This document shows, piece after piece, positions 57,079 through 62,482 of a DNA stretch of 64,000 nt. Numbering within the stretch: the first letter of the stretch is position 1; each line of letters begins with the position of its first letter. The position numbers and the translations under genes are program-made. The notes beneath the pieces are model-generated. The model had not been told where the DNA came from, searched no databases, and worked only from the letters and a program-made list of their open reading frames with translations. The stretch covers positions 372,001 to 436,000 of the forward strand of contig LODT01000021.1 in the NCBI GenBank assembly GCA_001606155.1, given 5' to 3'. This stretch comes from Tieghemostelium lacteum (taxonomy: Eukaryota > Evosea > Eumycetozoa > Dictyosteliales > Raperosteliaceae).

Positions 57079-57564
57079 ATGTCTTGGCAGGTAATAATAT
57101 ATTTAAAAAAACTATACTAAATGGTATTAATATGAAATTATAGTCATTTATTGATACAAATTTAATACATACTGGTAAAATTTCAGAAGCTGCAATATTA
57201 GGTGCTGAAGACGGAATGAGATGGGCTTATAGCAGAGGTTTTCATTTACTTCGTAAGTGTTTAAATTTAAAATATATAAAATTATATTAATTAAGGTAAA
57301 GCTCATGAGGGTAAACATATTGTAGACCTTTTTAACAGTCCAAATGATGTAAATGGTAGTGGTGTAATCTTAAATGGATGTAAATACATTGTTATTGCCT
57401 CTACAGATAGATCAATCTATGCTGTAAATGGACTAAATGGTGTGGTTTTAGTTAAAACAAAGTCAACAGTAATTGTGGCACAATATGAAGCACCTGTTAA
57501 ATGTGAACTTGCTGCTAATATTGCTGAGAGTTTAGCTGTTAATCTTTTGAGTAATGGTTATTAA
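57079..57564 (+). CDS. Profilin
   Basis: Three short exons, 57079-57090, 57144-57252 and 57296-57564, give 129 residues, the usual profilin size. It is missed by long-ORF searches because the first exon is four codons (MSWQ). Profilin binds actin monomers, poly-proline and phosphoinositides. Family marks are MSWQSFIDTNLI, the alanine-rich AAILGAEDGMRWAYSRGF, VILNGCKYIVIASTDRSIYAVNGLNGVVLVKTKSTVIVAQY and the C-terminal helix NIAESLAVNLLSNGY. The terminal SWQ and poly-proline-binding aromatics (Trp3, Trp near 31, Tyr at the C-terminus) are kept. Dictyostelids carry several profilins; which paralogue this is cannot be told. Confidence 0.93.
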
Positions 57565-57888
57565 TAAATTTAGTATAGAGACTTTAACTTTTAAATGAAA
57601 TAATCATAATAATAATAAAAATATCAATCTATTCTAATTTTAAATGTAGACTTATATAATAATTAATTACAAAAAAGTGTATGGTTTTATATATTTATTA
57701 ATTGGATATGCTAAATTTTAATTTTTTATTGTTTGGTTGTGTGTATATGGGATATAAATCTGGAGATGTGAAAATTTCTTGTGGGGGTGACTGATTGTGG
57801 AGCAAGGATTTACGATATCTTGTGGTCTTGTTATCAATCAAATTATTAGAAATACTCTCTATATAAGATCATAAAGTACAATAGTTAA
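57565..57888. other. Spacer between profilin and the fossil element
   Basis: AT-rich at first. From about 57770 to 57830 the plus strand becomes G-rich (TTGTGGGGGTGACTGATTGT). This may mark the edge of the inserted element. No gene recognised. Confidence 0.45.
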
Positions 57889-59193
57889 TTGAACAGAGTA
57901 ATGAATGAAAACTTGATCAAAGTAATTGAAGAGTATAAGAAATTGATTTACGATAAGGAGTCAAAAGTTGAAGGATGTATATTTACATTAAAGCATTGCG
58001 CTGATAGAATGGCAGAAATGAAAGAAAAGCTGGAAAATATGGATTTAGTAATGATTGTTTTTATGATTTATGAAAATTTGTCCAGATGAAATGAAGAGGG
58101 CATTTCCTACACCAGAGTCATTGAAATCATTTATTGGAGTATCAATAGTTTCAGGTGACCACCAATATCATTCTATAAACCCATCAGCAAAGAGAGTTAT
58201 CAAATTACTTTTAGAAGATGGTCATTTTAGAGTTCATCAGGATCAAGCTTCTTATCAATTAAGAAATATATCTTTAGTTGGAGAGAAGCCAGCAATAGCA
58301 TACAAGTATATAGATGAAAATAGTGCAGAGGTGTACATTAAGGGTAAAAAACCAATTGTCAAATCAAGAAAATGGTTAGTGAAACAAAAGAAGACATATG
58401 CCTATTCATCAGCATATACATGTATAAAGTGTGAAGGTGATGAATCACTAAAAGATACTTATGATAAATTTGTGAAAGAAGCAACAGCAATTAAAGAAAT
58501 GACTGGTGGTAGAATCAATAAGTTTGAAACTAGAGAATCATTGCACAGAGCAGGTGTTTGAACCTAGCTAAAGATTTGGACTTGCACATGATCTGGTTAA
58601 TGATTCAGAACCAAATGCTTTACTTTATAATGGTGATTGTACAGTTAATGGAGATGTATTATTCGGTAAATACATAGATGAAGTAATGGGTTATGTTCAA
58701 CAAGGAGTACTAAGATCCAAAGAGCTCTTCCAAAAGCTATGGGGATTTTTAGGTAAATTATCTAAAAGAATTAATCATTGTAATGCCAAACTAGTTAAAG
58801 AAATAGATAATGGTGAGCACAAAGTTGCATTCAAAGATATTGATTTTGAATTAGATTGTGGATATCAACACCTATCATTCAAGAGTTATTAAGGAAATAC
58901 AGTAGGTCAACAAAGTATTAATTCATTTAAATATTATGATACACCTTATGCCAGATTAGTACCATTTATTTTATCAAGAGGTAGAAAGATGACTGGATCT
59001 ATCATTGCACCATTCATTGAAGACATTGTTAGAGTTCACGGATGGATTTTACTCAAAGAAAGAGCAGGGTATCACTCAAGATACAAGTAAAAGAGGAGGT
59101 AAATCTCTTGATAATGTGAAGTTAGGTAATGAACCTGGTAATCTTAAGTATGAAGGTTTCTGTGAATATGGTGAAGTGAGTAAGATGAAATAG
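57889..59193 (+). mobile_element. Fossil of a PolB-bearing (Polinton/Maverick-like or related protein-primed) element
   Basis: A row of open pieces on the plus strand reads like parts of one long protein that has been broken several times. Short motifs suggest a family-B DNA polymerase of the protein-primed kind used by Polintons, virophages and linear plasmids: HFRVHQDQASYQ-type and TGGRINKFET stretches towards the front, and a YDTPYARLVPF piece with a TDGF motif towards the back, where the metal-binding palm motif is expected. No capsid, integrase or protease gene and no terminal repeats were seen, so this is a lone remnant. The amount of damage suggests middle age: clearly dead, but still readable. 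It abuts the Uma2-like gene. Confidence 0.5.
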
Positions 59194-59256
59194 GTTAATG
59201 ATGAATTATTTATTAAATCATAGGCTGAATTGAAATTGTTTCTAGTTTTGGTGGTT

Positions 59257-60413
59257 TCAGTCCATTGGATATGATGACAAATCCAACTTAAAGCCATTTA
59301 CATCCCCAATACAATGAATTATCAAATTTGGTCCATGTTGAGGTAGAGCTATAATTTGATTGGGTGGCCATAAGGGAACTGAAACATGGCATACACCTGG
59401 ATGATTAGGTACAACTCTCATGCTATCAAAATATATATGGTTGAAATTGTTTAAAATATTTAACTGATCTTGTTTTGTCTGTATAGAATTTAAAATATCT
59501 TGATGCCCCTCTGTACCTACTAATCCAGGATTAATAAGTAGGGACTGGTGGCTTCCTAAAATCCTATTTTGAAGTTGAGCAATTTGTTGTGGAGTTTGTT
59601 GTATTTGAAGTTGAGCCTGTGGATGTACATATAGATTGGGTTTACCAACTTGAGGATGAAGTAGATTTGTTCTACAATATAAATCAACCATTCTTGATTT
59701 CCCATCAATCAAAAGACCTGACTCTGATCCACATTCTATCCACATACACATCTTATCCATTTGATATTGACGTTCATTGTTGGGTCCTAGTGAATATGAA
59801 CGGTTCTCTATAACAAAAGATGGTGCAATTGGAATAGTATTATTCTTTCTTGTCTCTATATCAATATTCATATGTTGTTGGAGGGGAAAGTAGGCAGCAT
59901 CTGGCCCACTATATATTAAACAGATATAATAACATGTTAGTAATATAAAAACGAATTTGTATTCACTTGATCTTACAATTTTCCATCTGTATTAGGTCCT
60001 ACTAAATGAAACTTTGAGCTTGAATCATTGGGAAGTACCAAACCATGGTCAACTGTCCAATTACTAAGTTGTCTACCCAATTCAATATTCTGTCTTGTGG
60101 GAAGATCAGCGATTGTTTTAATGTTGATTAATGAGCTATTCAATGTTTCAATGTTAAGATTATCATTAAACTTGATAAGTTCAGGTATTGATTTTGCAAA
60201 TGTTGGTGAGTTGTTACTAATATGTATTGGTAGAAGAGGAAGTAGAGGTGATAAATCAATGCTAGTTTCTTCTGGAACTTCTATACAATGGTGGTTAATG
60301 TATTTTGGGTTGAAACTACTATTTAATTTCTTGAATTTTTGAAATTCCTTTTCTGAGATTCTCCAAGGTAATTTCAGTTTGTGAGTTTCTATAAGCCCTC
60401 TTAAATCACCCAT
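59257..60413 (-). CDS. Uma2-like (DUF820, PD-(D/E)XK nuclease fold) protein, 362 aa
   Basis: Two minus-strand exons, 59977-60413 and 59257-59908. The middle part follows the bacterial Uma2 restriction-endonuclease-like pattern. A helix (NIELGRQLSNWTVDHG) leads to LVLPNDSSSKFHLVGPN and then the strand with FGPDAAYFP (Asp near 149, completed across the intron). Next come IAPSFVIENRS (Glu in the place of the catalytic E) and YQMDKMCMWIECGSESGLLIDGKSRMVDLY, with Lys in the expected helix. The active-site acids and the lysine look kept. The C-terminal 130 residues (Gln-rich, then HPGVCHVSVPLWPPNQII) are not part of the standard domain. Uma2 proteins are common in cyanobacteria and other bacteria, but not typical of eukaryotes. 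DNA cleavage is not shown; the fold assignment rests on pattern only. Confidence 0.65.
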
Positions 60414-60574
60414 TTTGAAAAAATAATTTAAAAATTTACCAATACACTTTTATTTCTTGTTTTTCGAATAATAATTTGAAGTTCTGAGTTTATGTACGAA
60501 TTATTTTAGTTATTATACAATTATTTTTTGAAAAAGTATAAGAGTTTTTTTTTTTAGTTTTTTTGCGTGTGACA

Positions 60575-62482
60575 ATGTCAAAAGATGTTATCTTTTTAGA
60601 TTTATCCAATAATTTCATGAATATGGAATTATATGGGAACAGAAGAACAAATCATAATATATCCAATAGATATGATTTAAACAACAAGTTAATTAAAAAT
60701 TTAGATTTAGATTATGTCATACCATATACTTTTGAAAATAAATGTCCATTCTATATGGAATGGTCACCTGATAATGTTAATTTAGCTTTAGCAACAAGTA
60801 AGCTTTATGAATAATTCAATAGATGTAATATTTCAAGTTTATAGTTTATCTAATTTTGAATGAATATAGATGACAGTGTAGATATTTTTGAATCGAATTC
60901 AGGTGAATTACTATATAGTATAGCTGAACACACTCAAGTCATATCAATGGTTATATGGTTTAACAAATTACATAAGAGTTATGATGATGAATCAACTCTA
61001 CCTCCACCACCTAGTAAGAAAATTCCTGTGGAGTTAAAAGAAGCAACTTCAAGAGACACCTATAAAAATACATTAGAATCTAGATACAATTCATTGATTA
61101 CATGTTCGTTAGATAGCACCATAAAAGTTTACGAAAACTTTAGACTGAAAACAAATTTAGAGGATCCAAGTGACGACAAGAAAGACTGGATAAAGTCATT
61201 AGCACTATCACAAGATGACAGAGTTCTACTGAGTGGATATGCATCAAGTTCTATAAGTGCTTGGGATATGACTGTAGGGCAACCTACATTTAAACTTGTA
61301 AAAGCACATTCTGAAAGTAACCAAGAACTAAACACTATAAACACAATTAAATTTCAAAATTTGAATAATAATATATTCCTTACTGGTGCTAGATATGGTA
61401 GTATTAGAATGTGGGATATGCGTACTCCACCAAAGACACCTATATTTCACATTCATGCTCATAATAAGCTAAATGGTGTGCATTTCACTGCTGATGAGCG
61501 AAGGATGTTGTCTAATGGAAGAGATGGTGCTATTCGTTTGTGGGATTTGAGAAGTATCCAGTCAGACCCTTCCACAAAGATCTTTAGTAATATTGTAAAT
61601 CACAATGAAATGGATCACCATAAAACAGGACTTTTGAAAGAGTACAAAGGACACAAGTGTGGTAGCTATAATATAGGTTGTGCATTTATAAATAACGATA
61701 GACACATTGTTTCTGGATCTGAAGACCACTGTATTTATATATACGACACAGAGACTGCAAAAATTGAAAAGAAAATGTTATCTCATAAATCTGCAGTTCA
61801 TTTAGTTCAACCATGTAAAGGTCAACAGAATATCGGGTCACCAGACTTTAGAGTTGCAACTGCTGCCATTGAGTCTTGTAATATTCATGTCTACAGTCCA
61901 CAGATACAAGACGGAGAGGAAATCAAACAGAAACCCTCTATTGGCAGTAAATTTGTTGGTGTACCTAAACCGGATGACACTGATGTTGATACTAATATTA
62001 AATTTATAACCTATGTCCAAAGAGTAACCATGGAAAAACTCATGAAGAAATTGGGTGACCAGATATTTAGTTTTTATCATAAACATAATTTATTCCCAAA
62101 CTCTGATCAAGATAATAACCCAGAGTTTAAAGTAATGTATGATAAAATTGAAAAACTCTTTTACAAGGAATTCTCTATTGAAGCTGAGGCTGTTGCTAGA
62201 AAACTAGGAAAACAGCCTAAAGATATTTTAGATCTACTCTATACTGATATAAATATTCAAGAGTTTAATAATAATAATAATAACAATAATAATGATGATA
62301 CTAGTTCAACTTTAGATAATTCAGATGATGAAACTAATTTAAAAGATCTTGAAGTACTAAGACAAATTTTAGAAGCTGGTGAAGAATATCTGGATGATGA
62401 CGATGACGATGACGACGACGATGACGATGACGATGATGATGATGACGATGATGATTATAATGTTAGTGATTATGACTACTAA
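60575..62482 (+). CDS. WD40-repeat protein with poly-aspartate tail, 611 aa
   Basis: Two exons, 60575-60797 and 60870-62482. WD40 repeats cover about residues 55-390: FYMEWSPDNVNLALATS, NSLITCSLDSTIKVYENF, RVLLSGYASSSISAWDM, NIFLTGARYGSIRMWDMRTPP, RRMLSNGRDGAIRLWDLR and RHIVSGSEDHCIYIYDTET. A helical C-terminal part follows (MEKLMKKLGDQIFSFYHKHNLFP, FYKEFSIEAEAVARKLGKQPKDIL), then an Asn run and a stretch of about 20 Asp residues before YNVSDYDY. The RRMLSNGRDGAIRLWDLR repeat has a WDxR end, as in substrate receptors of CUL4-DDB1 ligases, but an orthologue cannot be named. Start ATG 60575. Confidence 0.85.
62394..62455 (+). repeat. GAY trinucleotide microsatellite (poly-Asp codons)
   Basis: About 20 consecutive GAT/GAC codons near the 3' end of the WD40 gene. 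Mixed GAT and GAC use suggests that the run is selected or old, not a fresh slippage product. Confidence 0.8.

What the first reader, a model, noticed from the sequence alone, without database searches (positions are those of the whole stretch)
57889..60413. Fossil PolB element directly beside a bacterial-type Uma2 nuclease-fold gene
A broken family-B DNA polymerase remnant of Polinton or linear-plasmid character (57.9-59.2 kb) ends within about 65 nt of the stop of a gene with an Uma2 (DUF820) PD-(D/E)XK pattern. Uma2 is a bacterial family. The gene has a spliceosomal intron that splits its first catalytic motif, has an extra C-terminal region and looks intact, while its neighbour is dead. 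This is what one expects if a passenger gene came with, or next to, a mobile element and was then kept by the host. Co-arrival is inference; the adjacency is seen.
Basis: partly seen in the sequence, partly recalled or inferred. Interest (0 to 1): 0.7.

Follow-up and report, generated by a model that had tools for sequence, protein, structure and literature searches.

The report
Uma2 nuclease gene in virus remnant
In what looks like a social-amoeba genome, a bacterial-type DNA-cutting gene (Uma2) sits in the wreck of an integrated Polinton-like virus, and related copies in the same genome suggest that such viruses carry interchangeable DNA-cutting genes and that the Uma2 gene can outlast the virus that brought it.

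Summary
At 60413-59257 (-) lies an intact one-intron gene for a 362-aa Uma2 protein (Pfam 39.5 bits, cut-off 27; PDB 1wdj E 1.5e-12). Its stop codon is 42 nt from the end of a broken PolB-like gene.

Uma2 is a dispersed family: 19 places of type A (my grouping) and 4 of type B. The PolB-Uma2 junction recurs at C23, C19 and C7. In the C19 copy Uma2 lies between the PolB tail and a terminal repeat shared with PolB- and fibre-bearing copies. Of 13 Uma2 3' flanks read, 9 abut convergent virus-gene remains, one by a short DNA match only. Two virus copies 95-97% identical through fibre and DUF5679 differ in the next gene: GIY-YIG or Uma2-B; a third has an HNH gene there.

So Uma2 is most likely an accessory nuclease gene of Polinton-like viruses. 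"Kept by the host" is only partly supported: 0 net frame-breaking indels in Uma2 against 7 in the fossil, but dN/dS of the recent copies is 0.64-0.81. Activity, expression and other species are untested; no profile confirms the PolB label.

The parts
59257..60413 (-). Uma2-A gene, 362 aa, two exons (60413-59977 and 59908-59257)
   Evidence: Gene model; Pfam Uma2 39.5 bits; 1wdj; 8 of 9 modelled paralogues share the intron site
59909..59976 (-). GT-AG intron, 68 nt, phase 2, two codons upstream of the GPD motif
   Evidence: models were chosen by similarity to the window protein
60414..60543 (-). Leader of the gene shared with the C23 and C19 copies; homology to them ends at 60543
58557..59214 (+). 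Broken PolB-like gene, C-terminal part (residues ~472-689 of the C23:1136803 relative)
58076..58555 (+). Broken PolB-like gene, N-terminal/middle part (residues 143-345); residues ~346-471 missing between the two parts
57883..58041 (+). Remnant of a small coiled-coil gene that stands beside the terminal repeat in the C36 copy
   Evidence: 94.7% DNA match 57883-58029; 89% protein match 57907-58041

Best explanation
The window holds the remnant of an insertion of a Polinton-like virus (Maverick kind). Both terminal repeats and most genes are gone; what is left is part of a left-arm coiled-coil gene, two parts of the PolB-like gene and, complete, the accessory gene that stood between PolB and the right terminal repeat: a Uma2-A gene. 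Shown: the gene, the junction, its recurrence, the shared terminal repeat in the C19 copy, and exchange of nuclease genes in a second slot. Inferred: the protein is a PD-(D/E)XK DNA endonuclease, and it serves the virus as the GIY-YIG and HNH genes do that occupy the equivalent slot in other copies, by cutting competing or host DNA or by driving its own spread between viruses. Also inferred, and weaker: after the virus died the Uma2 frame was kept longer than its neighbours.
For: Junction PolB-Uma2, convergent, at window, C23, C19 and C7; the C7 fragment is 86% identical to the C42a gene and 76% to the C19 copy over the Uma2 part, so another clade. In C19 the order is terminus TTTTTGCGGGTGTGA, Uma2, PolB tail; the same terminus follows PolB at C23:201k and flanks the coiled-coil gene at C36. 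9 of 13 Uma2 3' flanks carry virus-gene remains (8 by protein match, B C7 by an 84-nt DNA match of which about 27 nt lie in DUF5679). Copies at C23:1148k and C23:1094k are 96.7% (488 nt) and 95.4% (241 nt) identical, then carry GIY-YIG and Uma2-B respectively. Neither PolB nor DUF5679 ends at the element's end, so these are internal slots.
Against: 4 of 13 flanks show no clear virus gene: C42a (3 of 500 shuffles with one peptide, 65 of 500 with the other, 20 tests in all), C29b, C40, C42b. No complete element with both terminal repeats and Uma2 was seen. The uninterrupted PolB-like relative (L050) has no Uma2 after PolB in the 3.1 kb read beyond it. 4 of 8 loci with the PolB tail lack Uma2 after it. 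Capsid genes were not sought. PolB, fibre and coiled-coil names are mine; no profile supports them.
Confidence: 0.72

Rival explanations
1. Uma2 is an old host gene family and viruses integrated beside its members, by chance or by targeting their 3' ends.
For: Many copies; C42b, the most diverged modelled copy, shows no virus gene in its flank; host-type introns.
Against: The junctions fall at internal points of the virus, not at its terminus. In the C19 copy Uma2 is inside the terminal repeat. Nearly identical virus copies have Uma2-B or another nuclease at the same point.
Confidence: 0.12
2. One chance junction of a Uma2 gene with a virus fragment was spread by ordinary segmental duplication.
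For: Window, C23 and C19 are 95-97% identical and must share one junction by descent.
Against: The C7 copy has the junction in another Uma2 clade; a second kind of junction, with DUF5679 and fibre, is found for type A at C29a and C26 and for type B.
Confidence: 0.12
3. The retained Uma2 genes are under no selection; they are merely young passengers not yet broken.
For: dN/dS 0.64-0.81 in the recent trio; substitutions in exons 31 of 1082 against 12 of 643 in the fossil; the C29b copy has lost the catalytic D; several of the 10 unmodelled places are fragments with stops.
Against: Frame-breaking indels between window and C23 copies: 7 in 667 nt of fossil, 0 net in 1089 nt of exons, Fisher p 0.001; with two mutually cancelling one-base gaps counted, p 0.03. 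One pair of copies only.
Confidence: 0.4

Closest known systems
Uma2 / DUF820 / COG4636 (PF05685), structure 1wdj
   Same: Profile match over the nuclease core; invariant P148, D149, E180, K198 in six aligned paralogues; prokaryotic members form paralogous cassettes and were called likely solo toxins (PMC2701414, passages).
   Different: Eukaryotic genes with a spliceosomal intron, an extra conserved C-terminal region, and a place in virus-like elements; about 30% identity to the cyanobacterial plasmid-borne matches.
Polintons/Mavericks of dictyostelids (D. fasciculatum, P. pallidum)
   Same: PolB-like, rve integrase and S3-type helicase genes, which PMC3671162 places in its polinton trees (passages).
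   Different: None of the passages seen mentions Uma2 in them.
[quoted passage not shown]
   Same: Same slot in this genome is held by GIY-YIG or HNH; such genes in PLVs are treated as homing genes in PMC12220804 (passages).
   Different: Another nuclease fold; homing was not tested.
BRO-N-VRR-NUC gene of the Oxyrrhis PLV
   Same: A nuclease of the PD-(D/E)XK superfamily (superfamily recalled) as PLV accessory gene (PMC12721341, passages).
   Different: Different family and fused to BRO-N.

Membership tests
Uma2 (PF05685) | Whole-protein score over Pfam's curated cut-off | tested here: met
   39.5 bits against 27; exon 2 alone 26.0, just under
Uma2 (PF05685) | Catalytic PD, E and K residues | tested here: met
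   Invariant in six aligned paralogues including the window; the 1wdj alignment keeps them. C29b, not among the six, has V for D149
Uma2 (PF05685) | PD-(D/E)XK fold | tested here: inconclusive
   Exon 2 folded alone, pLDDT 31.6; fold rests on homology to 1wdj
Uma2 (PF05685) | Nuclease activity | not testable with these tools
   Needs biochemistry
Polinton/Maverick | PolB and rve integrase in one element | tested here: inconclusive
   L050 has both side by side, integrase 0.7 bits under cut-off and PolB by motif only; the window itself has no integrase; the C23:772k copy has integrase remains
Polinton/Maverick | Terminal inverted repeats | tested here: inconclusive
   Same terminus in opposite orientation relative to the genes at C36 (left) and C19, C23:201k (right); no copy with both ends seen; window has neither
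Polinton/Maverick | Capsid, ATPase and protease genes | not tested
   Not sought; a fibre-like and a core-like frame in L043 were named by eye
Homing endonuclease gene | Cutting of the unoccupied site and copying into it | not testable with these tools
   Only the exchange in the slot is seen

The most novel reading that the evidence does not exclude
Uma2 is a so far unrecognised homing-type nuclease cassette of eukaryotic DNA viruses: it moves between at least two gene slots of Polinton-like viruses, alternating there with GIY-YIG and HNH genes, and after the virus dies the amoeba keeps it as a ready-made nuclease against related viruses.
Probability: 0.22. Interest if true: 0.85.

Novelty: new variant of a known kind. 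Interest (0 to 1): 0.6.

Why it matters
If right, a widespread bacterial nuclease family with no known role has a second life as a virus-borne gene in eukaryotes, in a slot where nuclease genes are exchanged. That gives a concrete, testable system for how protist viruses swap nucleases and for whether hosts keep them as defence.

Tried and rejected
Led nowhere: relatives of Uma2-A in viral contigs (26 pattern stretches, none confirmed) and in prokaryote genome contigs (36 stretches, none confirmed); Uma2-B in plasmids (no match); the PolB-like relative in viral contigs, phages, plasmids and PDB; PADLOC for one Uma2-A and one Uma2-B (0 families); folding exon 2 alone (pLDDT 31.6), so no fold search was made; the terminus motif in the window (no match with 0 or 1 mismatch, one with 2 at 57779).

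Considered and rejected: a single acquired gene (19 + 4 places); the common edge of several fossil copies at 58557 as an element end (it is the edge of a deletion in the window copy); a linear plasmid (integrase and terminal repeats in relatives fit a Polinton better). A tree of the 8 modelled Uma2-A proteins resolved little (1 of 5 inner branches starred). A tree with bacterial Uma2 was not made.

Print searches, in an open-licence library only: Uma2 + Dictyostelium (1 paper, on a fungal inositol kinase family, not opened), Uma2 + polinton (0), Uma2 + eukaryotic + transposon (3, of which I opened PMC2701414 by passages), DUF820 + nuclease + eukaryot (3, of which I opened PMC1913061 by passages). 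Papers seen by passages found by term only: PMC3671162, PMC2701414, PMC1913061, PMC4931340, PMC2836005, PMC11071308, PMC10120064, PMC12721341, PMC12220804. All other papers were seen in listings only.

Full report
What is there. The window is C18:372001-436000 of an unnamed 23.3 Mb genome in 43 contigs. That fits D. lacteum (23.4 Mb, 54 contigs; PMC4931340, passages), but the species is inferred. Between a gene ending at 57564 that reads as profilin and a WD-repeat gene starting near 60577 (both named by eye) lie, on the + strand, pieces of a small coiled-coil gene and of a PolB-like gene and, on the - strand, an intact Uma2 gene of 362 aa with one 68-nt intron. The two 3' ends face each other 42 nt apart.

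Is it Uma2? Yes by profile: 39.5 bits against a cut-off of 27; a profile of six paralogues finds one solved structure, 1wdj, at E 1.5e-12. P148, D149, E180 and K198 are invariant in those six. Residues 229-362 are an extra region, conserved among paralogues and without a library match. tblastn of 72,556 plasmid records gave 7 matches, all cyanobacterial, at 29-33% identity.

Is the fossil PolB? It matches a 690-aa uninterrupted frame at C23:1136803-1138872. No profile library, PDB search or tblastn names that frame, so the label rests on motifs recalled by me and on its neighbours in L050: an rve integrase (31.9 bits, cut-off 32.6) and an SF3/primase-type helicase. Dictyostelid PolB, integrase and helicase proteins were placed in polinton trees in PMC3671162 (passages). 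Polinton PolBs carry a vOTU-like domain before the polymerase (PMC11071308, passages); the first window piece resembles one by eye only. The part that would hold the first polymerase motif is missing in the window.

A family, not a single gene. The Pfam model finds 13 stretches in the genome. The window protein finds 35 stretches, by my grouping 19 places, type A. A second subfamily, type B, has 4 places and was not found with that query. Of 9 type A places modelled, 8 give a full-length one-intron gene with the intron at the same site; models were picked by similarity to the window protein. The other 10 places were not modelled. The 4 type B genes have an open main exon of 269-271 codons.

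The junction recurs. The window matches C23 over 58557-60543 at 94.8% and C19 over 59151-60543 at 95.7%, so PolB tail, Uma2 and leader belong together in all three. At C7:174k a Uma2 C-terminal fragment abuts a PolB tail in the same orientation; the fragment is 86% identical to the C42a gene (285 nt) and 76% to the C19 copy (223 nt), so another clade. PolB tail peptides in the 3' flanks beat all of 500 shuffles at window, C23 and C19 with both peptides; at C7 0 of 500 and 5 of 500 shuffles reach the score; at C42a 3 of 500 and 65 of 500, which is not convincing among 20 tests. In the C23 copy integrase remains lie beyond PolB (61%).

Uma2 is inside the element. Upstream of Uma2 in C19 lies a repeat that ends in TTTTTGCGGGTGTGA. 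The same end occurs after PolB at C23:201k and beside the coiled-coil gene at C36, in the opposite orientation to the genes there, as a terminal inverted repeat would. Genome-wide there are 5 matches with up to one mismatch; the reversed control pattern gave 1; I looked at 3 of the 5. At C36 the end abuts a chromodomain retrotransposon frame, as an insertion would. In C19 the order is end, Uma2, PolB tail. At C23:201k it is PolB tail, about 950 nt of other sequence, end. So the 3' end of PolB is not the end of the element.

A second slot. Type A genes at C29a and C26 abut a remnant of a DUF5679 gene (C29a remnant 24.8 bits, cut-off 27), followed at C29a by a fibre-like remnant. Type B at C23 and C17 has both DUF5679 and fibre matches, at C2 a fibre match, and at C7 only an 84-nt DNA match of which about 27 nt lie in DUF5679. 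In the C36 copy this slot holds an HNH gene (PHROG E 4e-6; no Pfam HNH match) and in the copy at C23:1148-1150k a GIY-YIG gene (MUG113 26.5 bits, cut-off 22.3; T5orf172 19.0, under its cut-off 20). Each of those two gave one match in the genome, itself. The C23:1148k copy (GIY-YIG) and the C23:1094k copy (Uma2-B) are 96.7% identical over 488 nt and 95.4% over 241 nt, with 357 nt of the fibre missing in the latter; identity stops within 10 nt of the Uma2-B stop codon. That is an exchange of one nuclease gene for another. Of 7 DUF5679 places the next gene was read at 4: Uma2-A, Uma2-B, GIY-YIG, HNH; the other 3 could not be fetched.

Counts. Of 13 Uma2 3' flanks read (9 A, 4 B), 9 carry virus-gene remains: 3 PolB, 5 DUF5679 or fibre by protein match, 1 by the short DNA match. 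The other four are A C42a (weak PolB), C29b (31 nt shared with the C29a flank only), C40 and C42b. The C7:174k fragment is a 14th case, with PolB. In each the virus gene is convergent with Uma2. A crude chance estimate with a rough tally of markers gives 0.01 flanks expected and 5e-5 for two or more. Of 8 loci that reach the PolB tail, 4 have Uma2 after it; C14, C11, C31 and C23:201k do not.

Selection. dN/dS is 0.18-0.33 between the trio, the C29/C26 group and C42a, 0.39-0.52 within the C29/C26 group and against C42b, and 0.24-0.46 among type B; dS is near or above 0.7 in most of the deep pairs, and the constraint may date from life in viruses. Within the recent trio it is 0.64-0.81. Window against C23: 12 of 643 sites differ in the fossil, 31 of 1082 in the exons; frame-breaking indels 7 in 667 nt against 0 net in 1089 nt, Fisher p 0.001, or p 0.03 if two one-base gaps in exon 1 that cancel each other are counted. 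So the frame has been kept, but strong constraint on the protein since the last duplication is not shown. Exon 1 differs more than exon 2 (20 of 436 against 11 of 646, p 0.008), unexplained.

How it most likely works. Shown: position, copies, exchange. Inferred: a metal-dependent PD-(D/E)XK endonuclease used by the virus as other accessory nucleases are. Sharing a slot with GIY-YIG and HNH genes makes cutting of competing DNA, or homing-like spread, the leading roles; free-standing GIY-YIG and HNH genes of such viruses are treated as homing genes in PMC12220804 (passages), and virophages have swapped GIY-YIG domains (PMC3671162, passages). In bacteria the family was called a likely solo toxin (PMC2701414, passages). 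I give the cargo reading 0.72 and the bold reading (homing cassette plus retention by the host) 0.22.

Novelty. Uma2, polintons of dictyostelids and nuclease genes in such viruses are each known. In the searches named under Tried and rejected, which cover an open-licence library only, I found no report of Uma2 in such elements. I rate it a new variant of a known kind.

Noticed in passing
L003 (C29:785k): Uma2-A copy with an intact frame but V in place of the catalytic D149.
   Followed up: no
window 59977-60413 against L035: Exon 1 of Uma2 differs more between recent copies than exon 2 (20 of 436 against 11 of 646, p 0.008), much of it amino-acid changing.
   Followed up: no
window 57671-57869: A repeat left of the fossil, 81% to C31:454k and, over 62 nt, 95% to C13:59k; a piece of the terminal repeat lies within 1 kb of it at C31:454k, so it may be part of the element.
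   Followed up: partly
C31:1510000-1529999 (L039, L040): Long array of repeated units (up to 92% over 3.8 kb) with several PolB-like fragments inside.
   Followed up: no
C23:1132000-1150000 (L050, L059): Uninterrupted helicase, integrase, PolB-like, DUF5679 and GIY-YIG frames within about 17 kb: perhaps one less decayed virus copy; the stretch 1142-1148 kb was not read.
   Followed up: partly
L052:377-2723: Long frames after the C42a Uma2 gene that read by eye as an NAD-dependent DNA ligase, not scanned.
   Followed up: no
L043:6133-7930: Two frames near the C36 virus copy, one with weak matches to DAP3 and STAND-type NTPases, the other without a match.
   Followed up: no
L038:4800-5430, L047:4640-5150: PolB-tail copies without Uma2 share another partly coding sequence after PolB (88.9% over 504 nt), unidentified.
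   Followed up: partly
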